NCBI RefSeq assembly: GCF_000196895.1
Contig: NC_014297.1
Span: 1,184,119-1,248,118, forward strand
Source of the DNA: Halalkalicoccus jeotgali B3
GTDB lineage: Archaea; Halobacteriota; Halobacteria; Halobacteriales; Halalkalicoccaceae
DNA: 64,000 nucleotides
Direction of reading: 5' to 3'
Shown here: piece by piece, positions 42,057-63,509 of the stretch
Layout: each line of letters starts with the position of its first letter
Position numbering within the stretch: the first letter of the stretch is position 1
The notes under the pieces: generated by a model
Databases searched by the model: none
Seen by the model: only the letters and a program-made list of their open reading frames with translations
What the model was told of the DNA's origin: nothing
Translations under genes and position numbers: made by a program

Positions 42057-43001
42057 CTAGCTCGCCACGTCTTCGATCTCCTCGCGGATCTCCTGGACGT
42101 CCTCGAACGATTCTGCCTTCGAGCCCAGCACGTCGACACAGACCTCGACGAGTTCGTCCTCGCCGAAGGCGACCTGCCCTTCGGCGATCATGACCGCTGC
42201 GCGCGTCCCGACGTGGAGTTCGAGGCGATCACGGAGCTCGCGGACGATATCGACGATCTCCTCGATCTCTCCGTCGTCGAGATCCGAGACGCGCGACGAG
42301 ACGATCTCGATCTCGGTGTCGCGCTCGTAGTAATCGAGGTGAACACCGATGAACCGGTCAAGCAGGGCGTCCTGCGGGCGGTGGACGCCGGCGTATTCCG
42401 TCGAGTTCGAGGTGAAGATCGCACGAAAGTCGGAGTCGACCTCGACGATCCGGTTTTCGCCGCGCTGGCCGGGCCGGTCGAGGACGCCCTCCTCGAAGAC
42501 CGAGAGGAGAACGTTGTGGGCGGCGGGTTTCGTTCTCGAAAACTCGTTGTAGACGAGCGTCGCGCCGTTCTGGACGGCGACGGAGAGCGGGTTGTCGACC
42601 CACCGATCCCGGATGATCGACTTCTTCTTCATCACGCCCCGGACGAAGTTGTCCCGCTCTTTGTACTGGGCCTTGCCGGCGTGTTCGCCGACGAGTGATC
42701 CGGTGTCGATCAGTTCGTCGCCGTTGACCCAGACGACGGGCTGGTCGCGGGCGGCCGCGATCGAGAGTGCGAGTGCGGTCTTCCCACAGCCGGTCGGCCC
42801 GACGATGTGGACCGGTCGGGGGACGTCGAGCCAATTGCGCACGCGGTCCTGTATCGACTCGATCTCGTCGGTCTCGACGAACGAGCCGCCGATCGCCTCC
42901 TCGACGCTCGTCGGCGCGAACGTCGCGCCGTCCTCCCCATGCTCCCGTACGAACCGTTCGAGTTGGCGTTCTTCCTTGTCCATGGCTGTGTTCTCGGCCA
43001 T
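42057..43001 (-). CDS. gvpN: GvpN-like MoxR-type AAA ATPase (orphan)
   Basis: A 314-residue AAA ATPase. The Walker A motif is VHIVGPTGCGKTALALSIAA near residue 70, the GvpN-type stretch QPVVWVNGDELIDTGSLVGE follows, Walker B-like is LVYNEFSRTKPAAHNVLLSV near 152, and sensor 1/arginine-finger regions are FRAIFTSNSTEYAGVHRPQD and ALLDRFIGVHL. These fit the gas-vesicle protein GvpN, which is needed for full gas-vesicle growth. No other gvp gene is in the window, so gas vesicles cannot be concluded. ATG 43001 was chosen; ATG 42983 (MDKEERQLERF) is also possible. Confidence 0.85.
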   Translation of the reverse strand: MAENTAMDKEERQLERFVREHGEDGATFAPTSVEEAIGGSFVETDEIESIQDRVRNWLDVPRPVHIVGPTGCGKTALALSIAAARDQPVVWVNGDELIDTGSLVGEHAGKAQYKERDNFVRGVMKKKSIIRDRWVDNPLSVAVQNGATLVYNEFSRTKPAAHNVLLSVFEEGVLDRPGQRGENRIVEVDSDFRAIFTSNSTEYAGVHRPQDALLDRFIGVHLDYYERDTEIEIVSSRVSDLDDGEIEEIVDIVRELRDRLELHVGTRAAVMIAEGQVAFGEDELVEVCVDVLGSKAESFEDVQEIREEIEDVAS

Positions 43002-43449: not shown

Positions 43450-43962
43450 ATGTACGCCGTCGTCGGCTGTACCGATTGCAACGCCCTCTGGCTCATTGAG
43501 GGGCGCCAGGAAACGGTCCGGTGTCGGGGCTGCGGGAGGACCCACCAGTACGGAAAGTTAAAACAGTTCGTCGAGACCGAGGACGCGAACCACGCCCGCG
43601 AGGTGCGCGCCTCGATGCTGGCAAGCCGGGGCGGGCACGCCGACGCCTTCGCCGCAGTCGATTCGTTCGCCGACCTCGATTCGCAGGTCGAGCGGTCCGT
43701 CATCGACGACGACGAACTGCTTGAGGGGGCGGGTATCGACGCCACGGCGGCGGCCGCGGCCGGAACCACCGAAAGCGCCTCGAAGGACCGCAGGGAGGTC
43801 GTCCTCGACGCCGTCGAACACTACGAGGAGCCGACGGCGCGGGCCGTCGTGGACTACGCCACGGAGCGGGGCATCCCGGAGGGCTACGTCGAACGGGCGC
43901 TCGAGAAACTGGTCCGCGCCGGGGAACTCACGGAGTCCGACGGCCGGTACCGCCGCCTCTGA
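43450..43962 (+). CDS. zinc-ribbon DUF5817-like protein with winged-helix C-terminus
   Basis: A 170-residue protein. It starts MYAVVGCTDCNALWLIEGRQ, and the cysteines CTDC and CRGC form one zinc ribbon (residues 7-30). A helical linker rich in Ala and acidic residues follows. The last 60 residues resemble a winged helix (DAVEHYEEPTARAVVDYATE, then PEGYVERALEKLVRAGELTE), typical of the haloarchaeal DUF5817 proteins. A nucleic-acid role is likely, but the target is unknown. ATG 43450. Confidence 0.8.
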   Translation: MYAVVGCTDCNALWLIEGRQETVRCRGCGRTHQYGKLKQFVETEDANHAREVRASMLASRGGHADAFAAVDSFADLDSQVERSVIDDDELLEGAGIDATAAAAAGTTESASKDRREVVLDAVEHYEEPTARAVVDYATERGIPEGYVERALEKLVRAGELTESDGRYRRL

Positions 43963-43980
43963 GTTTCCTCGTCGAATTAG

Positions 43981-44018
43981 CCTGTCGGTAACTAAATACT
44001 TATACGCATAGTTACAGG
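43981..44018 (+). promoter_or_regulatory. operator-like inverted repeat over the promoter of the receiver-HEAT-GT2 operon
   Basis: An imperfect inverted repeat brackets the likely promoter: cctgt-cg-gtaacta (43981-43994) and tagttacagg (44009-44018), whose 10 bases read cctgtaacta on the other strand. Between them is a TATA-like aatacttatacg. The start codon at 44038 is 20 bp downstream of the repeat. A dimeric regulator could bind here and block TBP. No regulator is identified. Confidence 0.5.
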
Positions 44019-44037
44019 TATACATCCTTCGAGACCC

Positions 44038-44406
44038 ATGAACACGGACGTCTTTGTCGTCGACGACGAGCCCGAACTCCGGGAGCTAGTCTCGTTTCAC
44101 CTCGAGACGGCCGGGTACGACGTGGCGACGTATCCCGATGGCGAGGCCTGCTGGCAACAGCTACAGGGGACGGATTCACCCCCGGACGTGCTGCTCGTCG
44201 ACGTGATGATGCCGAACATGAACGGTTTCCAGCTGCTGAAGGCCGTTCGGGACGGCGAGGGTCTTTCGGAGCTGCCCGTCATCATGTTGACTGCCCGCGG
44301 AACCGAGACTGACGTGGTACAGGGATTCGACATCGGCGCGACGGACTACCTGACCAAACCGTTTCGCTCACAGGAACTGCTCGCCCGGATCGGGCGGTAC
44401 GTCTGA
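44038..44406 (+). CDS. stand-alone receiver-domain response regulator
   Basis: A 122-residue receiver domain with no output domain. The acidic pair is in VFVVDDEPELRELVSFHL, the phosphoacceptor Asp in VLLVDVMMPNMNGFQLL near residue 60, the Thr in MLTARGTETDVVQG near 87, and the Lys in TDYLTKPFRSQELLARIG near 110. All key residues are present, so it should be phosphorylatable. It heads an operon whose stop overlaps the ATG of the HEAT-repeat gene by one base. Such single-domain regulators often act by protein contact, here perhaps on the downstream synthase complex. Confidence 0.92.
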   Translation: MNTDVFVVDDEPELRELVSFHLETAGYDVATYPDGEACWQQLQGTDSPPDVLLVDVMMPNMNGFQLLKAVRDGEGLSELPVIMLTARGTETDVVQGFDIGATDYLTKPFRSQELLARIGRYV

Positions 44407-45497
44407 TGGCGCTCCCGCCCGGATTGGTATCCCGACCGTTCGTCTACGGCCTCTTAGCGGTCGTCCTCTGTTCGCTACTCGTCGTGGGACTGTTCACGGT
44501 CGGTCGTGCGATTCGGATCGAACGGCGAAACGAACGACGGGAAGCGGTCCGGCCGGCGGTTCGGGCTGCCCTGTTCGACCGGCTCGGGGGAGACGACCCC
44601 GATTGGGAGCCGTGGATAGAGGGGCTCACGCCGTCCGAGCGAGCGGTCCTCCGGGACCTGCTCGATACGCACCTCCGACTGCTCGACGGCGACGACCGCG
44701 AGCGCCTCCAACCGGCCGTCGCCGCCGTCGGAATCGATGAGTGGGCGATGCACATGGTACGGACGGGCGACCGATACGCGAAGCTCAGGGCCCTGAGTTG
44801 GCTCGCCTACGTCGACCATCGCCACGACCCAGCGCTGATCCGTCGGGCGTGTGCCGACGATCCCGCGCTCCAGGCCGCAGGGGCCCGCGTCATGGTCGAA
44901 CGCGCGTACCCAAAGGCTCCGGCACGCGGGATCGCACTCCTCCTCGACGATCCGCCCGAGTCGCTCTCGGCGTTCGGTCTCGACACTCTCTACGAACTCG
45001 CCCGCACGCGGCCGGGTTTCCTCGCCGAGTACGCGGAGGCGCGATACGAACGCTGGACGGACACACTCCTGATCCAGGTGTTTCGGGTACTCCGAGTGAC
45101 CGATTCGGGCGCTGCCGTCGATCGGTTCGACTGGGTCGTCGACCACTGTAGACACGATTCGCCGGACGTGCGGGCGGCCGCGATCAGAACCCTCGCCGAC
45201 GGTGGCTGGCGACCCGAACTGCGCTTGCAGGTGCCGATCGACGCTCTCACCGACGACCCCTCGCCGGCGGTCCGTGCGGCGGTCTACGAGATGCTAGGAG
45301 AATGGGGCGACGCGGAAAGCGTTCGGACGCTTGCTCGGGTTGCCCGCCGAGAGGAGGATTCACGCTGCCGTCTCCGGGCTGTCCGGGCCCTCGCCCGGGG
45401 TCGACCGGACGACGATCTCGAAGCGGCCGTCAGATCGGACTTCCCGTCGCTGTGGGGCTGGGCGGTCACCGGCGAGGACCGGGTGAGCGCTCGATGA
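44406..45497 (+). CDS. membrane-anchored HEAT-repeat protein
   Basis: A 363-residue protein. One N-terminal helix (PFVYGLLAVVLCSLLVVGLF, about residues 10-30) anchors it, followed by a basic patch (RIERRNERREAVRP). Residues 50-350 are helical HEAT/ARM-type repeats, recognisable in ALSWLAYVDHRHDPALIRRA, DSPDVRAAAIRTLADGGWRP and DDPSPAVRAAVYEMLGEWGD. The repeats probably form a scaffold for protein contact. Translation is coupled on both sides: TGATG with the receiver gene and ATGA with the glycosyltransferase. Nothing enzymatic is visible. Confidence 0.82.
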   Translation: MALPPGLVSRPFVYGLLAVVLCSLLVVGLFTVGRAIRIERRNERREAVRPAVRAALFDRLGGDDPDWEPWIEGLTPSERAVLRDLLDTHLRLLDGDDRERLQPAVAAVGIDEWAMHMVRTGDRYAKLRALSWLAYVDHRHDPALIRRACADDPALQAAGARVMVERAYPKAPARGIALLLDDPPESLSAFGLDTLYELARTRPGFLAEYAEARYERWTDTLLIQVFRVLRVTDSGAAVDRFDWVVDHCRHDSPDVRAAAIRTLADGGWRPELRLQVPIDALTDDPSPAVRAAVYEMLGEWGDAESVRTLARVARREEDSRCRLRAVRALARGRPDDDLEAAVRSDFPSLWGWAVTGEDRVSAR

Positions 45498-46911
45498 TCG
45501 ACGCTGCCACGTTCGTCGCACTCTCGGGGCTGTTCTTCCTCGGCTACTACCTCCTCGTGCACGCGAACTACCTGGTTCTTCACGTCCTCGCACTCGCGGA
45601 ACTGCGCGAGAGCACACGCCAACGGACCTACGAACCCGCCTACCAGCCCTTTGCCAGTCGGTTCCTCCCTGGCGTGGCGATCATCGCGCCGGCCTACAAC
45701 GAGGCGCCCACCATCGTCGACAGCGTCCGCTCGTTGCTGGCGGTAAAGTACGCCGACAAAGAGGTCATCGTAGTCAACGATGGTTCGACCGACGACACCT
45801 TCGCGAGACTCGACGAAGCCTACGATCTGCAGACGGTCGCGGACTACCCACTGGAGATACCGTCGGCGACGGTTCGCGGGGTCTATCGGTCAGCCGTCTC
45901 CGAGGAGCTGTTGGTGGTCGATAAGGAAAACGGCGGAAAGAGCGACGCGCTGAACGCCGCGGTCTGGATCACCGACCAGCCGCTGTTCTGTGCGGTCGAC
46001 GCCGACTCGGTGATCGACCGCGACGGGCTATTACAGGCCGTCGAGCCATTTCTCGAGGACCCGAACCGGACCGTCGCGACCGGCGGGACGATCTGGGCGG
46101 CAAACGGCTGTGAGATCGAACATGGCGTCATTCGGTCGTTCGCACTCCCCTCGAGCCTGCTCGCGAAGGTGCAGGTCGTCGAGTACCTGCGCTCTTTTTA
46201 CGCGGGGCGACTTGGATTGAGCCGGCTGAAGGGGTTGATCCTCATCTCCGGGGCCTTCGGCGTCTTCGGACCGACGTGGTCCGCGAGATCGGGGGGTATC
46301 GTCGCGACACCGTGACCGAGGACATCGACCTCGTGTTACGAATCCACCGCCACGCCGCCGAAATCGGGCGCGAATACCGCGTCCAATTCGTCGCCGAGCC
46401 CATCGTGTTGACGGAGGTACCCGAACGGCTGGGTGAACTGAGCCGACAGCGCCGCCGGTGGTATCGCGGATTGATCGAGACGGCCGTCGCCCATCGCGAT
46501 ATGATGGGACGCCGGTCTTACGGCCGCGCGGGATACGTCCTGCCCGTGTTCGTCGTCGTCGAGGTGTTCGGACCGCTCGTCGAGGGCCTCGGCTATGTAG
46601 TGGTCACGGTGGCCTTCGGCGTCGGTGCGCTGGATCTCGAGTTCTTCGTGCTGTATTTCGTGATCACGACCGGCATCGGTGTGTTGCTCTCGTGGTTCAG
46701 CGTCCTCACCATCGTCGGCGGTTTCAGCCGCTACGACCGGGTTCGACAGATCGTCGCGCTGCTCGGGATCGGCGTCCTCGAGAACCTCGGCTTCCGACAG
46801 TGGAAGGCGCTGGTTTCCTGGCACGGCCTCCTCGAGTACCTCCGAGGCGAGGACTCGTGGGGTGTCATGAGACGGAGTGGTTTCCGGGGCATCGAGGATA
46901 CGGAGAGTTGA
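45494..46911 (+). pseudogene. processive family 2 glycosyltransferase, frameshifted as written
   Basis: A GT-2 membrane synthase like those making cellulose, PNAG or hyaluronan. The first 274 codons (45494-46315) give a leading helix, AIIAPAYNEAPTIVDSVRSL, VVNDGSTDDTFARL and the DxD in FCAVDADSVIDRDG. The second part (from about 46270, ending 46911) gives VREIGGYRRDTVTEDIDLV (TED), LSRQRRRWYRGLIETA (QxxRW) and four helices. The two frames differ by one base. A missing base near 46268-46269 (ttcggaccgac, expected ttc-ngg-acc-gac) would restore FxTDVVREIGGY. It could be a real mutation or a sequencing error. It is coupled to the HEAT gene (ATGA). Confidence 0.88.
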
Positions 46912-46955
46912 GCGGTACGGTTCCGTCGTCTCGACCGCGAGCGCTCGCGGTCGCA

Positions 46956-49900
46956 TCACGCCCCCGAGTGACGCGTCCCCGGGTCGCCCTCCGTCGATGA
47001 CGGATGGACCGAGAACTCGAATCGAGCACCGCCGTCGGTGCCGTCCGTGACCGTCACCGTCCACCCGTGTGCCTCAACGATAGTGCTGACGATCGACAGT
47101 CCAAGGCCGGTGCCGGATTCGGTGGTGGTGTGACCGTATTCGAAGACCGCCTCACGGTCCTCCGCCGGGACCCCGGGCCCGTCGTCTTCGACGTAGAACC
47201 CGTCGGGTGTCGCGCCGACACGACACGTCACCCCCTCGCTTCCGTGTTCGATCGCGTTGCGAAACAGGTTCTCGAAGACCTCCTCCAGTCGACTCCCGTC
47301 GGCCGCGACACACCCCGGATCGCCATCGACGACGAGTCGTGCCTCAGCAGTCTCGACGTTCTCCCAGGCGTCCTCGACCACCTCCGCGAGCGAAACGGAT
47401 CGCGTCTCGCCGATGGCCTTTCCCTGGCGGGCGAGCGTCAGGACGTCCTCGATGATCCGTTCCATTCGGTCGTGAGCACTCTGAACCTTCCCGAGGAACT
47501 CGCGTTGTTCCTCCGGAACGTCGAGGACTTCGAGGTAGCCGCTGGCGACCGTCAGCGGGTTGCGGAGGTCGTGTGAAATCAGGCTCGCAAACCCTTCGAG
47601 GCGCTCGTTTTGCCGTTCGAGTTCCCGCTCGTGGTTCCGTCGTTCGAGTTCGCTTGTGACCCCGCGAACGAGGAGGTCGACGAACGCCAGTTCGAGGTTG
47701 GTGAAGTCCGACTCGCGCGGCGCGCGACTTGCGAAACAGACGAGGCCGTAGCGCTCGCCGTTGACGGCGAGTTCCGAGGTGACGTAGGAGTCGAACCCGA
47801 AGCGCCCGGCGACGGGATCGTCGTCCCACTCGGCGTCTACGACATTGGGGACGGCGACCGGTCCATCCCGGCCGATCGTCTCTTGACAGTACGACTCCGG
47901 TAGCGACCACTCCTCGTCCGGCCGGACGTTCCCGTCCGACCCGCGGACTTCGAGGATCCGGTGTCTGTCGTCCTCCAGACGCGTGAGGAAGGCCCCGTCG
48001 GCGTCGAGGTACTCGCGTCCGAGTTCGAGCGCACGCCCGATCCGGCCGTCGCCGACCGTGTCGGTGTCAGACCAGAGTTCGTACAGTCGGCGGCGGTACT
48101 CCTCGTGTCTGCGGTGTTCGCTGACGTCGGTGTAGATCCCGAACGCCTCTGTCCCCTCGGAGTCGATCGGGACGTTCCGGAAGAGGAACTCGTGGACGTC
48201 CCCGTCGGCCGTCCGCCGGTGGACCTCCGCCGTGATCTGCTCGCCCGCCATCGCCGTCCGGTCGATCTCGGCCGCCTCCTCCCTACGGTCGGGGGGAACG
48301 ATGAGGTCGTTCAGCGACCGGCCGACCGCCGTCTCGGCGTCGTAGCCGAACACCTCCTCGAAGCCATCGTTGACCGACGTGACGATCAGATCGCCGTCGC
48401 GGAAATCGACCGTCACGGCCGGATCCGGGATGTAGTCGAACAGCGCCGCGAACCGGTCGCGCTCGCGGGCGAGCCCGAGTTGGTGTTCGCGTAGGGCTTG
48501 CTCGCGATCCGAGCGATCGATCGCGACCTCGGCGTTGGCTGCGAGCACCTGTACCAGCCCGAGGTCCGACTCGTCGAACTCCCCGACCGCGGTCGATCCC
48601 ACGAGGACTACGCCGTGGTCACCGAGTGGTACGTACATCCCGCTTCGGATCGGCGTCTCGTGGTTGTACACTTCGCTTGTGGTACGGACGTCGTCGTAGA
48701 CGGCCGCCTCGCCCGTCTCGAAGGCTTCCCACGCCAATCCCGAACCGGCTTCAAAGGTCGGCGGCCGACCGATCATCTCCTCGGCCGCCGGCGTCAGGGC
48801 GATCGGGACGAGACCGTCGGTATCCGGATCGTGGTAGTGGACGCCGACCAACGGGTGATCGAGCACGTCGACGACCGTCTCGACGACGATATCGGCCACG
48901 TCTTCCGGCGTCCGAACGGCCATGAGTTCCCGCGTCGCGTCGTGGAGCGCCGCCAGCATCCGCTCGTGTCGCTTCTGTTCGGTGACGTCCTGGAACGCCC
49001 CACGGATCAGCACTGTCTCGCCGCTCTCCTGGTGGGGCTTTCCCGCGACTCGGACCCAGCGGACGTTCCCGTCCGCGGTCGTGATCCTGGCCTCGATGTC
49101 GAAGGGGTCGCCGTCTTTGATCGCGCGCTCGATGGCCTCCTCGATGGTCGGGACGTCCTCGGGATGGTAGTATCCGAGGACGCTCTCTCTATTTAGCTCG
49201 TCCTCGAACGACAACCCGTGGATCCGGTAGACCTCGTCGGTACACCGCAGCGTCTCCTCGACGAGGTCGAGTTCCCAGCCGCCGACGGTAGCCATTCGCT
49301 GTGTGTGTTCGAGCAGATCGGTCTTGCGGTCGAGTTCGCGCTGGCGTTCGCGGCGCTCCGAGACGTCGCGGATCGCGCCCACGACGCCGTTGAACTCCCC
49401 GTCGTCGATGCGGGGCGCCAAGTGGTCCTCACAGGGGATTCGCTCGCCGTCTTCGGTTCGGATCTCGAACTCGACGGTGGTCTCGTCGATTCCCGTAGAG
49501 AGCATCTCCCCGAGGACCCGCTCGAACATCGCGGTCGTCTCGGGGTCTTTGATACAGTCGACGCCCTCGCCGACGACGCTCGCGGCCTCGTAGCCCGTCA
49601 GTTCGGTGAACGCCCCGTTGACGAACTCGAAGCGGCCCCGCCCGTCGAGGACGTAGACCGCGTCGTCCATCGCCTCGATGATCGCCTCGTACTGTTCGAG
49701 GTCGCGCTGGTGGCGCTTTCGCTCGGTGATGTCGCGGATGACGCCCGTAAAGAGGTGGGATCCGTCCTCGACGTACTCTCCGAAGGAGATTCCGACGGGG
49801 AACTCGTGGCCGTCGCGGTGGCTCGCGGGCAGTTCGGTCCAGTCCCAGTCCAGCCGCCGATCGCCCTCGCGGAGATAGCGACTGACCGCCTCGAAGTGGG

Positions 49901-50498
49901 GCTGTTCGAGGCGGTCGGGAACGATCTTGTCCAGCGAGTCCCCGACCATCTCCTCGGGGGCGTAGCCGAACATCGCCTCGACGGCCTCGTTGGCGTACTG
50001 GACGACGTTGTCCTCGTCGATCGTGATCACGGAGAAGGCGGCGTTTTCGGCGAGCGACCGAAAGCGCGCGTCGGCGGTCCCGAGCGCGCAGGGCTCCTTC
50101 CGACGCGCTACGTGTTCGCGCGCCTCGACCGCGTCCGCGATCCGCGTTCCGAGAAGCGCTCCCCGACGGGGCTCGATCTCGGCCGGGAGGACGTCAGTGA
50201 CGCCTGCGGAGATGGCCGTCTCGACGGCGTCCTCGTCGTCGACTCGGAGGAACACGGGGAGGGCTGCGTCGACCTCACGAACCCGATCGAGGAGCGCGAG
50301 ACCGTCGGTTTCCGGTGGGTCGTGCTCGCCGAGGATGCAGTCGATACTCGATTCGGTGAGTCGCGTGAGGTCGTCGTCGGTGGCCGTCCGCACCTCGAAG
50401 GCGCGACGGTCGCTTTCGATGGCTCGACGCGTCCGGGCGGCTGCCTCGGGGTCGCCGACGTAGAGGACCTCTATCGGTACGTGCTCCGTCTCGCTCAT
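46956..50498 (-). CDS. multi-domain PAS/GAF hybrid sensor histidine kinase
   Basis: A 1180-residue soluble kinase. Order, with rough residues: degenerate receiver (8-125), PAS (150-265), PAS (275-390), PAS (400-515), GAF (525-670), PAS (690-800), GAF (815-960), HisKA (975-1040, phosphoacceptor His in FASLISHDLRNPLTVASGYL) and HATPase (1060-1165, N-box FENLFRNAIEHGSEG, VEDDGPGVP, ESGTGLGLSIVST). In the receiver the usual Asp before 'xDMP' is Glu (CILGEHDPPETDG), so it is unlikely to be phosphorylated normally. No membrane segment is seen. ATG 50498 starts MSETEHVPIEVLYVGD. The HalX regulator gene lies 50 bp upstream on the same strand. Confidence 0.9.
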   Translation of the reverse strand: MSETEHVPIEVLYVGDPEAAARTRRAIESDRRAFEVRTATDDDLTRLTESSIDCILGEHDPPETDGLALLDRVREVDAALPVFLRVDDEDAVETAISAGVTDVLPAEIEPRRGALLGTRIADAVEAREHVARRKEPCALGTADARFRSLAENAAFSVITIDEDNVVQYANEAVEAMFGYAPEEMVGDSLDKIVPDRLEQPHFEAVSRYLREGDRRLDWDWTELPASHRDGHEFPVGISFGEYVEDGSHLFTGVIRDITERKRHQRDLEQYEAIIEAMDDAVYVLDGRGRFEFVNGAFTELTGYEAASVVGEGVDCIKDPETTAMFERVLGEMLSTGIDETTVEFEIRTEDGERIPCEDHLAPRIDDGEFNGVVGAIRDVSERRERQRELDRKTDLLEHTQRMATVGGWELDLVEETLRCTDEVYRIHGLSFEDELNRESVLGYYHPEDVPTIEEAIERAIKDGDPFDIEARITTADGNVRWVRVAGKPHQESGETVLIRGAFQDVTEQKRHERMLAALHDATRELMAVRTPEDVADIVVETVVDVLDHPLVGVHYHDPDTDGLVPIALTPAAEEMIGRPPTFEAGSGLAWEAFETGEAAVYDDVRTTSEVYNHETPIRSGMYVPLGDHGVVLVGSTAVGEFDESDLGLVQVLAANAEVAIDRSDREQALREHQLGLARERDRFAALFDYIPDPAVTVDFRDGDLIVTSVNDGFEEVFGYDAETAVGRSLNDLIVPPDRREEAAEIDRTAMAGEQITAEVHRRTADGDVHEFLFRNVPIDSEGTEAFGIYTDVSEHRRHEEYRRRLYELWSDTDTVGDGRIGRALELGREYLDADGAFLTRLEDDRHRILEVRGSDGNVRPDEEWSLPESYCQETIGRDGPVAVPNVVDAEWDDDPVAGRFGFDSYVTSELAVNGERYGLVCFASRAPRESDFTNLELAFVDLLVRGVTSELERRNHERELERQNERLEGFASLISHDLRNPLTVASGYLEVLDVPEEQREFLGKVQSAHDRMERIIEDVLTLARQGKAIGETRSVSLAEVVEDAWENVETAEARLVVDGDPGCVAADGSRLEEVFENLFRNAIEHGSEGVTCRVGATPDGFYVEDDGPGVPAEDREAVFEYGHTTTESGTGLGLSIVSTIVEAHGWTVTVTDGTDGGARFEFSVHPSSTEGDPGTRHSGA

Positions 50499-50547
50499 CG
50501 GCGCGGAATGTGGGACCCGGTCGGCGGTGGTCGTGTCGTCGCGCCAG

Positions 50548-51144
50548 TCATCGCCGGTCCCGGAGCCCGTCCGACCCCGACCCGCCGTCGTTGCCCTCCA
50601 TCGATCCGGCGATGGTGTCGAGTTGCCCGGCGAGATCCGCCAGTCGCGATTCGAGGGTCGCGTACTCCTCGTTTGCGGCCCGGTCGGCCTCGGTCGTCTC
50701 CTCGGCCAGCAGGATCCGTTTGCGCGAGAGGGTCGAGAACTCCCGCAGCGTCGCGTGATAGCTCGCCATCGTGAGCGTCCGCCGGATCGCATCCCGGAGT
50801 TCCGCTCGCGTGATGGGTTTGCGGAGATAGCCGTCGAACTCCATGCTCACGAGGTCGAAATCCGGTTCGACGCCCGAGGCCACGAGGACCTGACAGGACA
50901 GATCTCGCTCGCGGATGACGTCGAGCACGTCGTCGCCCGAGAGCGACGGGAGCTGTCTGTCCAGTACGACTACGTCCGTCTCGGAGTCGATCAGCTCTAA
51001 GCTCTGCTCGCCGTCGGTCGCCGTCCGGACGCTGTTCACATCCGACAGCCACTGCGTATAGAGTGCGGCGAGATCGCGGTCGTCCTCGACTACGAGGACC
51101 GATACGTCGTCGAGGGCCGGTGAGTTCGGCGTTATCGTGGACAT
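50548..51144 (-). CDS. response regulator with HalX output domain
   Basis: A 198-residue regulator. The receiver domain (15-125) carries VLVVEDDRDLAALY, the phosphoacceptor Asp in VVVLDRQLPSLSGDDVLDVI near residue 62, and the Lys in FDGYLRKPITRAELRDAIRR near 109. The C-terminal HalX-type helical region (about 130-195: SYHATLREFSTLSRKRILLA) is rich in charged residues and is found in haloarchaea. The output mechanism of HalX is not settled. It is probably the partner of the downstream kinase. ATG 51144 starts MSTITPNSPALDDVSVLVV. Confidence 0.9.
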   Translation of the reverse strand: MSTITPNSPALDDVSVLVVEDDRDLAALYTQWLSDVNSVRTATDGEQSLELIDSETDVVVLDRQLPSLSGDDVLDVIRERDLSCQVLVASGVEPDFDLVSMEFDGYLRKPITRAELRDAIRRTLTMASYHATLREFSTLSRKRILLAEETTEADRAANEEYATLESRLADLAGQLDTIAGSMEGNDGGSGSDGLRDRR

Positions 51145-51283
51145 TCGGGGGGCACCAATCGGATACGTATTATCTTTCCGATGATTTATAATTTTCTCTA
51201 GTACATAATGGGACGCGATCGAACGGGAGCAACCAAAAAATATCGCCGGAACGTTTATTTCCGATTCGTTACTATCTTCTGAT

Positions 51284-52153
51284 ATGAGCGTTCGCGAACC
51301 GGTCGAGTGGCGGATCGATGCCGCCAGCTCGTGGGGACTGCGTGCGCTCGTCTACGTCGTCGTCGGGCTCTGGGGCGGCGGCGCGCTTCTGGTCGCCGTC
51401 GGGACGACGTTCCTGGGCGTTTCGATGGGGCTGGGCGGTGAGTACGGCTTTCTCGCCTTCCTCGGACTGCTCGCGCTGATCGGCGGGCCGCTCTCGGTGC
51501 TCTACCTTCTGCCGATACTCACGGACCGCGAGCAACGCCCGCCGCTCGCGGCGCTGTTCGCCGACGAGAGGGTCGCCGAGCGCTACACCGCCGCGTTCAC
51601 CCGGGGACGGCTGTTCGCGGCCGTCCTCGGTGGGGCGCTCGCGATCCTCGCGGCGCTCTCGGTCGATCCGCGGGCGCTGTTCGTGCTGGTCGTCGGGACG
51701 TTGTTGCTGATCCCGCTCGGATCGGGCGTGGTCTCCTGGGGTCGGATCGATCCCGAAGAGGGGACCCTGACCCACCGCTATCGGACGATCTCGCTCTCGC
51801 GGGTCGAGCGGGTCCGCCGGGTCGACGTCGGGGGCGTCTCGCTGTGCTGGCTCTCCTACCGTCCAGGCGCCGCTGACGTGACGAGCCCACGATTCCTCGC
51901 GACCAGTCCCGAAGCGGCCGACGCAATCGAGCGGGCGCTCGCCGCGATTCCCGATATCGACGACGAGTACGAACCGGATCGGGCGGTGCAGGCTGCGCTC
52001 GCCGTTCTCGCGCTGTGTTTCCTCGGCCTCGCAGGGGCGGTGTTCCTCGCCGAACCCGGCGGCGCGGGCGATCCCGTCCTCAAGTGGTACATCGTCGTCG
52101 GGTTCGGTTTTTTCGGGACGATGCTCGGGCTCGCCGCCCTCGTTTCGGGTTAG
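51284..52153 (+). CDS. haloarchaeal multi-pass membrane protein of unknown function
   Basis: A 289-residue protein with about six helices: RALVYVVVGLWGGGALLVAV, YGFLAFLGLLALIGGPLSVL, GRLFAAVLGGALAILAAL, FVLVVGTLLLIPLGSGVVSW, then a soluble beta-rich section (WGRIDPEEGTLTHRYRTISL, residues 160-220) and two C-terminal helices ending GTMLGLAALVSG. The soluble section recalls a PH-like or DUF-type domain. No family is recognised. It is divergent from the HalX regulator and converges on hmgA with a 4-bp overlap. An attattt-rich spacer upstream probably carries the promoter. Confidence 0.72.
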   Translation: MSVREPVEWRIDAASSWGLRALVYVVVGLWGGGALLVAVGTTFLGVSMGLGGEYGFLAFLGLLALIGGPLSVLYLLPILTDREQRPPLAALFADERVAERYTAAFTRGRLFAAVLGGALAILAALSVDPRALFVLVVGTLLLIPLGSGVVSWGRIDPEEGTLTHRYRTISLSRVERVRRVDVGGVSLCWLSYRPGAADVTSPRFLATSPEAADAIERALAAIPDIDDEYEPDRAVQAALAVLALCFLGLAGAVFLAEPGGAGDPVLKWYIVVGFGFFGTMLGLAALVSG

Positions 52154-53379
52154 CGCCCGAGGTCCTCGTGGGCACTGGAGAGGTGCCGCGAGGCGAGCGC
52201 AGCCAGCAGCGAGAGTTCGCCCGCGAGCGCGCCCGTCGCGATGATCTCCGCGAGCGCGTCGGCGTTCGAGCCGGGTGGGTCACCGCCGCCGCTCAGACCC
52301 AGAACGTCGAGTGCCTCGGCCTGCGTCGGCAGTTTCGTTCCGCCGCCAACCGTCCCGACTTCGAGGCTGGCGATCGAGAGGCTCGCGTACAGCGAGTCGT
52401 CCTTGACCTCGGCGGTCGTGATCGCGTTCGAACCTTCAACTACTTGGGCGGCGTCCTGGCCCGTCGCGAGAAAGGCCGCCGCGATCGTGTTCGCGGCGTG
52501 GGCGTTGAACCCCAGACTGCCGGCCTTCGCGCTCCCGATCAGGTTCTTTCTGGTGTTCGCCTCCGCGATCGCCTCGGGGGTGGTGTGGAGGCGCTCCTCG
52601 ACGACCTCACGGGGGATCGTCACGTCGGCGGTGACGCTCCTGCCGCGGCCCTCGATCGCGTTGATCGCGGCGGGTTTTTTATCCGAACAGAGGTTGCCCG
52701 AGAGCGCGACCAGCGATGCGGTGGTCTCCTCTTCGATCAGGTCGCACGCGGCCTGGGTCGCGATCGTCACCATATTCATCCCCATCGCGTCCTTCGAGTC
52801 GAACCGGAACCTGAGGAAGACGTTGTCGCCGACGACGTACGGCGTGATATCGAGTAGCTCGCCGTGATTCGTCGTCCCCTCCGCTTTCTCACACAATTTT
52901 TCGATACTGCCCTGGACCCATTCGACGATCTCGGCGGCCTCGGCGATCCCCGCGACGCGGAAGACGGGCGCACGGGTCATCCCCGACTTCGTGACGCGAG
53001 CGTTCGCGCCACCGGCGGTCCGAATGACCGAACAGCCCCGGTTGACCGAGGCGACGAGCGCGCCCTCCGTGGTCGCGAGCGGCAGGTAGTGCTCGCCCCC
53101 GGCCGCGCCGCCCGCCGAGTCGCCATCGGTATTGATCGGAACCGGGCCGACGACGCCCATTGGGAGCTGTGCGCCACCGATCATGTTCTCGATGTTGGGC
53201 TCGGCATCGCCCGCCGAAAAGGAGAAGTCGCCAACTGTGCCGAGGTCGGCGTCGGTTTCGGCTTCGAGCAGCTTCCGGCGGGCGGCGGCGGCCGTCTCGG
53301 GGTCGGCGTGCTCTTCGAGCTCGTGCAGGCGCAGGTCGCCCTCGCGGACGCGCGCCGCGAGGGCTGCTGGATCGTTCAT
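52150..53379 (-). CDS. hmgA: HMG-CoA reductase (class I)
   Basis: A 409-residue enzyme that makes mevalonate for the isoprenoid chains of archaeal lipids. ENMIGGAQLPMGVVGPVPI is near residue 64, the NADPH-binding region includes DAMGMNMVTIATQ near 200, the catalytic Lys is in GNLCSDKKPAAINAIEGRG, and GTVGGGTKLPTQ is near 350 (LPTQ is class-typical). The catalytic His lies in the last segment, ASRHLSSAHEDL. The ATG at 53379 starts MNDPAALAARVREGD. It is a good marker of an archaeal genome. Confidence 0.97.
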   Translation of the reverse strand: MNDPAALAARVREGDLRLHELEEHADPETAAAARRKLLEAETDADLGTVGDFSFSAGDAEPNIENMIGGAQLPMGVVGPVPINTDGDSAGGAAGGEHYLPLATTEGALVASVNRGCSVIRTAGGANARVTKSGMTRAPVFRVAGIAEAAEIVEWVQGSIEKLCEKAEGTTNHGELLDITPYVVGDNVFLRFRFDSKDAMGMNMVTIATQAACDLIEEETTASLVALSGNLCSDKKPAAINAIEGRGRSVTADVTIPREVVEERLHTTPEAIAEANTRKNLIGSAKAGSLGFNAHAANTIAAAFLATGQDAAQVVEGSNAITTAEVKDDSLYASLSIASLEVGTVGGGTKLPTQAEALDVLGLSGGGDPPGSNADALAEIIATGALAGELSLLAALASRHLSSAHEDLGR

Positions 53380-62703: not shown

Positions 62704-63509
62704 CTACCGGTCGTGTTCACGGGCGGTTTCGGGTTCTTCGTCTCCGGATGGTCTCTGATCCGGAACCGCCGCCTGTGGCGTCTCGTGGGTTACCTCGAGG
62801 AAGGCGTCCTCCAGACTCCGCTGTTTGCCGGTTTCCGCGCGCCGTTTCAGGTCGTCGGGCGACCCCTCCGCGACGAGACGTCCGTCGTGAATCACGCCCA
62901 CGGCGTCGGCGAGTTCGTCGACGACGGGGAGGATGTGCGTCGAGAGGAGGATCGTCATCTCCTGGGCGGCGAGCTCCGCGATGGTATCGCGCATGGTCCG
63001 GGCGGCCCGTGGATCCAGGCCCGTCGTCGGTTCGTCGAGGAATACGACCTGCGGGCGGTGGAGAACCGCCTGCATGATACCGAGTTTCTTTCGCATCCCC
63101 GTCGAGTACGAGTCGATGCGCTTGTCGGCGCCCTCGACGAGGTCGAAGCGCTCGAACAGTTCGGTCATCCGCTCGCGGGCTTCCGTCTCGGGGACGTCGC
63201 GGAGACCGGCGATATATGTCAACTGTTCGCGGCCCGTCAACTCGTCGTACAGGGGGGCTCGTCGGGCAAGTAGCCGATGTGGGGCGTGACGCTATCGCGG
63301 TGCTCGATAGAGGCCCCGGCGACGCGTGCGGTGCCGCTGGTGGGCCGGGTAAGCGTCGTGAGCATCCGCATCGTCGTCGTCTTTCCTGCGCCGTTGGGCC
63401 CCAGAAACCCATAGACGCTCCCCGATTCGATCGAGAGGGTGAGATCGTCGACCGCGGTTTCCTCGCCGTAGCGTTTGGTCAGTCCTCTCGTTTCGATAGC
63501 AGCGGTCAT
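62704..63509 (-). pseudogene. ABC transporter ATPase, frameshifted as written
   Basis: The N-terminal part (63509 to 63237) has [20 protein letters not shown], Walker [15 protein letters not shown] and IGYLPDEPP; the C-terminal part (frame from about 63251 down to 62704) has [16 protein letters not shown], the signature YSTGMRKKLGIMQAVLH, Walker B VFLDEPTTGLDP and the H-loop LSTHILPVVDELADAVGV. The frames differ by one base at a run of six G (63252-63257, plus strand); one more base in that run would restore [12 protein letters not shown]. It belongs to the CcmA/DrrA type. No permease gene is adjacent. It may be a true pseudogene or a homopolymer sequencing error. Confidence 0.88.

What the first reader, a model, noticed from the sequence alone, without database searches (positions are those of the whole stretch)
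44038..46911. Receiver - membrane HEAT - processive glycosyltransferase operon as a possible regulated polysaccharide system
Three genes are translationally coupled (TGATG, ATGA). The first is a phosphorylatable receiver without output domain, the second a membrane-tethered HEAT scaffold, the third a GT-2 synthase with DxD, TED and QxxRW. No PilZ or c-di-GMP element is seen. The simplest model is phosphorylation-dependent control of polysaccharide synthesis through the HEAT scaffold, perhaps replacing the nucleotide signal used in bacteria. The nearby convergent histidine kinase could supply the signal.
Basis: partly seen in the sequence, partly recalled or inferred. Interest (0 to 1): 0.62.

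Follow-up and report, generated by a model that had tools for sequence, protein, structure and literature searches.

The report
Receiver-HEAT-synthase exopolysaccharide module, copy broken
This is a haloarchaeal copy of a gene set, shared by archaea and many bacterial phyla, in which a phosphorylation switch, a membrane scaffold and a sugar-polymer synthase travel together; the synthase gene in this particular sequence is interrupted by a shift of reading frame.

Summary
The operon is real: a stand-alone receiver (REC, 44038-44406), a membrane-anchored HEAT protein (44406-45497) and a processive GT2 synthase. It stops at 46315 and continues in another frame to 46911; full-length homologues read straight through this point.
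The three-gene order is conserved far beyond chance: complete in 64 of 67 haloarchaeal loci, and in bacteria HEAT-like gene 69/70 and REC 55/65, across many phyla. In a class sample the HEAT and GT2 families occur in exactly the same 61 of 391 genomes. In diderms a YaiO-type outer-membrane barrel joins. A secreted glycosidase-like protein without a Pfam family co-occurs almost exclusively (42 of 43 genomes carrying it). Histidine kinases sit nearby in 48/67 haloarchaeal loci.
In the window, 44.0-51.15 kb (triad, kinase, HalX regulator) is one ~7.1-kb block, absent at this site in same-genus genomes.
Best model: phosphorylated REC acts through the membrane HEAT protein to control synthesis and export of an exopolysaccharide. 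Gene partnership is shown; the signalling step is inferred. Bare REC is also the commonest bacterial form, so it is not an archaeal replacement for c-di-GMP. I found no published description.

The parts
44038..44406 (+). stand-alone receiver (REC) domain protein, 122 aa, phospho-acceptor D55 with T85 and K107
   Evidence: Pfam Response_reg E 1.3e-30 over 5-118; phospho-site conserved D in 65/65 haloarchaeal and 60/63 bacterial module RECs
44406..45497 (+). membrane-anchored HEAT-solenoid protein, 363 aa
   Evidence: HEAT_2; AF2 model pLDDT 90.6, helix 10-60 then solenoid; distinct full-length family; bacterial counterparts by profile-profile, prob 99.6, E 2.6e-24 over 306 columns
45494..46315 (+). 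N-terminal half of processive GT2 polysaccharide synthase (first TM helix, GT-A core, DxD); ends at a stop after the frame break
46270..46911 (+). C-terminal half of the same GT2 in another frame (TED, QRRRW, C-terminal TM helices)
46266..46269 (+). position of the reading-frame break relative to homologues that are open here
46956..50498 (-). convergent multi-PAS/GAF histidine kinase (HisKA + HATPase), part of the same inserted block
   Evidence: Pfam; no match at E<1e-100 in ten relatives; empty site in same-genus genomes
50548..51144 (-). REC-HalX response regulator, directly upstream of and head-to-tail with the kinase; same inserted block
   Evidence: empty site
43963..51283 (.). interval that replaces a short (about 230-270 bp) intergenic stretch in same-genus relatives; about 7.1 kb inserted between conserved flanking genes
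43993..44004 (+). AT-rich TATA-like stretch (taaatacttata) upstream of the REC start, possible promoter of the operon
   Evidence: read directly from the sequence; inference, not tested

Best explanation
The operon is a haloarchaeal member of a widespread receiver-HEAT-GT2 exopolysaccharide module. A histidine kinase phosphorylates the stand-alone REC. REC~P binds or releases the cytosolic solenoid of the membrane-anchored HEAT protein, which sits next to the GT2. The GT2 is a hyaluronan/cellulose-synthase-type enzyme that polymerises a nucleotide-sugar and moves the chain across the membrane. In diderm bacteria a TPR/YaiO barrel would then pass the chain through the outer membrane. In many haloarchaea and some bacteria a secreted glycosidase-like protein acts on the product. 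Shown here: gene order, co-occurrence, domain identity, conserved phospho-site, synthase fold. Inferred: that REC talks to HEAT, that HEAT controls the GT2, and the polymer (an amino-sugar polymer is a weak guess). In this genome the module came in as a ~7.1-kb block with its own kinase and HalX regulator, and as sequenced its synthase is broken, so it is either inactive here or carries an assembly error.
For: Order: complete triad in 64/67 haloarchaeal loci with the GT2. HEAT and GT2 families in exactly the same 61 of 391 class genomes. In bacteria HEAT-like gene directly upstream 69/70 and REC at -2/-3 in 55/65, versus 12/253 RECs among genes further downstream. REC phospho-site conserved. 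HEAT membrane-anchored in the model. GT2 of relative L114: full-length match to hyaluronan synthase (Z 29.3, 385 aligned, rmsd 3.0) and BcsA (Z 25.8); nearest NCBIfam model PgaC/IcaA (133 bits, below its cut-off). TPR/YaiO barrel between REC and HEAT in sampled diderms. Glycosidase-like partner in 43 genomes, 42 with the triad, Fisher p about 2e-40 before correcting for relatedness, including genomes where it is not adjacent, and in 13 bacterial loci. Histidine kinase at +1 in 37/66 haloarchaeal loci versus 0/65 at -5. GlmS- and GlmU-like genes divergently adjacent in about a dozen close relatives. Empty site for the whole block.
Against: No direct evidence of REC-HEAT or HEAT-GT2 contact: no complex could be modelled and I saw no REC-HEAT or HEAT-GT2 fusion. 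The window GT2 is not open. The window genome lacks the glycosidase-like partner. A few relatives have HEAT-GT2 without an adjacent REC (L103, L106; two Thermoplasmatota MAG loci), so REC is not strictly required. Polymer identity is unknown.
Confidence: 0.62

Rival explanations
1. The module makes a polysaccharide, but the REC does not gate the synthase: HEAT is an assembly or stability factor for the GT2, and REC acts elsewhere (phosphate sink for the kinase, or acting on another protein).
For: HEAT-GT2 is tighter than REC-HEAT-GT2: HEAT 69/70 versus REC 55/65 in bacteria; loci without an adjacent REC exist. A second regulator (HalX) sits with the kinase here.
Against: REC directly precedes HEAT, often overlapping it, in nearly all haloarchaeal loci; in multi-REC proteins the C-terminal REC, nearest the HEAT gene, usually scores best against the module REC profile.
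Confidence: 0.22
2. The GT2 makes a short glycolipid or an envelope glycan rather than a secreted exopolysaccharide.
For: The product is not known; the top structural match is the single-domain mannosyltransferase PcManGT (Z 31.4, 335 aligned).
Against: Full-length match including membrane helices to HAS and BcsA; outer-membrane TPR/YaiO barrel in diderms; secreted glycosidase-like partner.
Confidence: 0.12
3. For this genome (compatible with the best explanation for the family): the GT2 is a true pseudogene and the module is dead.
For: One-base frame break against homologues open at this point; broken copies elsewhere too (L069, L102, L105; fragmented remnant in G014); glycosidase-like partner absent.
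Against: REC and HEAT are open and keep their motifs; a second apparent frameshift in the window (ABC ATPase at 62704-63509) makes indel errors in the assembly plausible.
Confidence: 0.42
4. The frame break is a programmed frameshift.
For: Both halves keep good coding statistics (0.35 per codon each).
Against: No other locus examined carries a break at this place and no slippery site was noted; recent loss or error explains the coding signal equally well.
Confidence: 0.03
5. The receiver belongs to motility and its place beside HEAT-GT2 is accidental.
For: Stand-alone receivers are common in chemotaxis (general knowledge).
Against: REC is upstream of HEAT-GT2 across archaea and many bacterial phyla.
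Confidence: 0.02

Closest known systems
PgaC/IcaA poly-beta-1,6-GlcNAc synthase systems
   Same: Nearest curated GT2 model (133 bits); processive GT2 with DxD, ED and Q(Q/R)xRW; in diderms a TPR plus outer-membrane barrel export protein
   Different: Far below the family cut-off (422 bits); HEAT and REC partners; the barrel is of the YaiO family; substrate not shown
Bacterial cellulose synthase BcsA (PilZ, c-di-GMP)
   Same: Full-length structural match of catalytic core and membrane helices (Z 25.8)
   Different: No PilZ domain in the GT2 and no BcsB among the neighbours annotated; REC/HEAT instead
Hyaluronan synthase (Chlorella virus, Xenopus)
   Same: Best full-length structural match (Z 29.3, 385 residues, rmsd 3.0)
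   Different: About 16% identity; disaccharide polymer and no REC/HEAT partners in that family (general knowledge); substrate here unknown
E. coli YaiO/YaiP/YaiS locus
   Same: An outer-membrane YaiO barrel encoded near a GT2; YaiO domains in the diderm modules here
   Different: YaiP scores only 60 bits against the module GT2 profile; no REC or HEAT gene at that locus
NfrAB, c-di-GMP-controlled EPS synthase of E. coli (PMC8669469)
   Same: GT2-based exopolysaccharide synthase under dedicated local control
   Different: Controlled locally by c-di-GMP according to the paper's title; no REC-HEAT pair (general knowledge)

Membership tests
REC-HEAT-GT2 module (as defined here from relatives) | REC, HEAT and GT2 in this order on one strand, closely coupled | tested here: met
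REC-HEAT-GT2 module (as defined here from relatives) | REC phospho-acceptor Asp, Thr/Ser and Lys | tested here: met
   D55, T85, K107
REC-HEAT-GT2 module (as defined here from relatives) | HEAT protein of the specific family, not just generic HEAT repeats | tested here: met
   full-length match 486 bits; generic HEAT proteins score about 37 bits or less
REC-HEAT-GT2 module (as defined here from relatives) | GT2 of the linked clade | tested here: met
   N-terminal fragment falls in the haloarchaeal clade, support 100, FastTree
REC-HEAT-GT2 module (as defined here from relatives) | intact GT2 reading frame | tested here: not met
   frame break near 46266-46269
Processive GT2 membrane synthases (HAS/BcsA type) | DxD, (T/G)ED and QxxRW motifs | tested here: met
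   DAD and TED/QRRRW present, though split over two frames; conserved in 44 relatives
Processive GT2 membrane synthases (HAS/BcsA type) | membrane helices around the GT-A core as in HAS/BcsA | tested here: met
   for relative L114, Z 29.3 over 385 residues; not for the broken window copy
PgaC/IcaA (TIGR03937) | score above the curated cut-off | tested here: not met
   133 versus 422 bits, relative L008
BcsA cellulose synthase | C-terminal PilZ domain | tested here: not met
   no PilZ in Pfam scans; protein ends after the last membrane helix
c-di-GMP controlled EPS system | GGDEF or c-di-GMP receptor in the operon | tested here: not met
   no GGDEF or PilZ among the genes scanned between 42.1 and 51.1 kb; present in some bacterial versions
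any of the above | polymer identity | not testable with these tools
   needs biochemistry

The most novel reading that the evidence does not exclude
A so far undescribed, cross-domain class of exopolysaccharide secretion machine in which a two-component receiver, rather than c-di-GMP, controls the synthase post-translationally through a membrane-anchored HEAT solenoid, with a dedicated glycosidase-like family and, in diderms, a YaiO-type exit barrel.
Probability: 0.5. Interest if true: 0.82.

Novelty: new variant of a known kind. Interest (0 to 1): 0.66.

Why it matters
Known synthase-dependent exopolysaccharide machines (cellulose, PNAG, alginate, NfrAB) are switched on largely by c-di-GMP, which haloarchaea are generally thought to lack (general knowledge). 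A module shared by Halobacteria, two Thermoplasmatota MAG loci and many bacterial phyla, with a phosphorylatable receiver next to a membrane HEAT solenoid and a synthase, makes direct two-component control of a polysaccharide synthase testable. It also names a glycosidase-like family without a Pfam entry as its partner, and shows the haloarchaeal synthases as one clade among bacterial ones, with the module at differing genomic sites.

Tried and rejected
Window HEAT alone as a collection query found nothing; the GT alignment with the two window fragments gave no usable pattern, and without them worked. Generic HEAT matches of about 37 bits or less were set aside as unrelated. The motility reading was rejected on conserved adjacency. 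Membership in PgaC and BcsA was rejected on score and PilZ. The glycosidase-like partner had no Pfam or NCBIfam match at E<=0.001 and no convincing PDB match; a weak GH113 hint (E 0.016 to 0.17) covers the conserved AEFG segment. Fold search of the HEAT model gave only generic HEAT/ARM solenoids. No direct repeat of 8 bases or more at the block ends and no tRNA nearby. The ten literature searches gave no description of the module; only an open-access library was searched, and two papers looked into proved unrelated.

Full report
OBSERVATION. The window is from a haloarchaeal-type genome of 3.70 Mb in 7 contigs. ORFs and Pfam confirm a 122-aa receiver (44038-44406), a 363-aa HEAT protein (44406-45497) and GT2 motifs, with stop/start overlaps at both junctions. 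The GT2 is not one gene as sequenced: the frame from 45494 stops at 46315 and the TED/QRRRW half lies in another frame to 46911. The relatives first compared (L002-L009) read through in one frame at this point. The two fragments are the only GT2 of this type in the genome; other matches are E 3e-7 or weaker. Whether the break is real is open: broken copies also occur at L069, L102 and L105, but a second apparent frameshift lies in the same window, in an ABC ATPase (62704-63240 / 63237-63509), so indel errors in the assembly are plausible.

CONSERVATION IN HALOARCHAEA. A HEAT profile in 391 class genomes gave a clear gap: full-length matches (E 1e-50 or better) versus generic HEAT hits (E 4e-9 or weaker). 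The GT2 profile gave the same picture, and the two families occur in exactly the same 61 genomes. Of 67 loci read with flanks, 64 have the complete triad in order; of the three others, L102 has a REC beside a fragmented HEAT and L103 and L106 lack an adjacent REC. Distribution is patchy (61/391), and in the genus it is found in two of seven genomes.

CONSERVATION IN BACTERIA. A GT2-alignment scan of GTDB contigs returned 80 loci, the best by tblastn of at least 489 relatives, mostly bacterial: Gemmatimonadota, Symbiobacteriaceae, Solirubrobacter, Clostridium, Paenibacillus, Bacillaceae, Alphaproteobacteria, Bacteroidota, Bdellovibrio and others, plus two Thermoplasmatota MAGs. They were chosen by synthase similarity, not by neighbourhood. 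A same-strand gene of about 350 aa directly upstream was found in 69 of 70 evaluable loci and a REC gene at -2/-3 in 55 of 65, against 12 RECs among 253 genes further downstream. The upstream genes are homologous to the haloarchaeal HEAT protein by profile-profile comparison over 306 columns including the membrane segment (prob 99.6, E 2.6e-24), and two tested are HEAT repeats by Pfam. In a FastTree tree of 142 synthases the haloarchaeal ones form one clade, support 100.

ADDED PARTS. In diderms a gene between REC and HEAT encodes TPR repeats and/or a YaiO outer-membrane barrel (PF19413 in L167, L168, L178, L185; TPR in L127, L133, L172). Of 56 bacterial loci with a REC, 34 have a stand-alone REC and 22 a longer protein; many of the scanned longer ones are (Hpt-)REC-GGDEF-REC, in some with an intact GGEEF motif (L123, L144, L186, L191) and in others none was seen. 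The C-terminal REC, nearest the HEAT gene, usually scores best. So bare REC is the commonest form, and GGDEF is a lineage-specific addition. Histidine kinases lie within -5 to +2 genes in 48/67 haloarchaeal loci, at +1 in 37/66 and at -5 in 0/65. GlmS- and GlmU-like genes lie divergently beside the triad in about a dozen close relatives, a weak hint at an amino-sugar product. A secreted or lipoprotein-like protein of about 660-790 aa (cluster 4, alignment A7) is near the triad in 29 haloarchaeal loci, present in 43 of 391 genomes of which 42 carry the triad (Fisher p about 2e-40, not corrected for relatedness), including genomes where it lies on another contig or far away, and found in 13 bacterial loci. 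Conserved GIEW and AEFG segments and a weak GH113 match suggest a clan GH-A glycosidase; this is a lead only. The window genome lacks it.

STRUCTURE. The window HEAT protein is predicted with pLDDT 90.6 as one long N-terminal helix (10-60) and a solenoid; fold matches are generic HEAT/ARM solenoids. The intact GT2 of L114 (pLDDT 91.2) matches single-domain PcManGT (Z 31.4) and, over the full length with membrane helices, hyaluronan synthase (Z 29.3, 385 residues, rmsd 3.0) and BcsA (Z 25.8). No PilZ was found. The nearest curated model is PgaC/IcaA at 133 bits, below its 422-bit cut-off.

THE INSERTED BLOCK. In four same-genus genomes (G001, G002, G004, G006) the homologue of window 43450-43962 is followed after about 230-270 bp by the homologue of 51284-52153; in G003 the same flank leads to the homologue of 52150-53379, and its triad lies elsewhere. 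Hence the stretch from about 44.0 to 51.15 kb (REC, HEAT, GT2, kinase, HalX regulator) is absent at this site in these relatives, and the window lacks a short intergenic stretch that they have. The kinase has no match at E<1e-100 in ten relatives searched. G+C is like the surroundings (0.661 versus 0.657 and 0.649), with no direct repeat found at the ends and no tRNA. The kinase and its HalX partner therefore probably came with the triad, which favours a functional link, but they form a pair of their own.

MECHANISM. Best supported: two-component phosphorylation of REC, passed by the HEAT solenoid at the membrane to a processive synthase-translocase. Gene partnership, REC phospho-site and synthase fold are shown; direction and contacts of the regulation are inferred. 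Against known systems it works like Bcs or Pga, but it is a member of neither by the tests made.

LIMITS.

Noticed in passing
62704-63509 (-): ABC transporter ATPase apparently split in two overlapping frames (63237-63509 and 62704-63240), a second frameshift in this window; bears on the indel rate of the assembly.
   Followed up: partly
42057-43001 (-): Gene scoring above the cut-off for gas vesicle protein GvpN (335.6 versus 266.8 bits); neighbouring gene calls were not recognised as gvp genes. Conserved in all five same-genus genomes compared.
   Followed up: no
L066:4290-6266 (-) and cluster 4 homologues; L144:7386-10619: Glycosidase-like family without a Pfam match at E<=0.001 (conserved GIEW and AEFG segments), nearly confined to genomes with the triad and present in bacterial modules too.
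   Followed up: partly
L086, L089-L095, L098, L105 (gene upstream of REC): A 320-405 aa protein overlapping or abutting the REC gene in ten loci; the one scanned (L093) has no Pfam match, only weak regulator hits in NCBIfam. Possibly a degenerate kinase or phosphotransfer protein.
   Followed up: no
L068 and L069 (G384, C2): Two copies of the module about 470 kb apart in one genome with similar flanks; the second copy has a frame-broken GT2.
   Followed up: partly
L102, L105, G014:C15:91282-92105: Independently broken or remnant copies of HEAT or GT2, suggesting repeated loss or sequence errors.
   Followed up: partly
L236-L240, stretch after the DUF5817 gene: A conserved short reverse-strand ORF of about 40 aa (membrane-like) appears to lie in the stretch that the block replaces in the window.
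   Followed up: no
43450-43962 (+): DUF5817 protein (both Pfam domains) bordering the block; conserved in all same-genus genomes searched.
   Followed up: no
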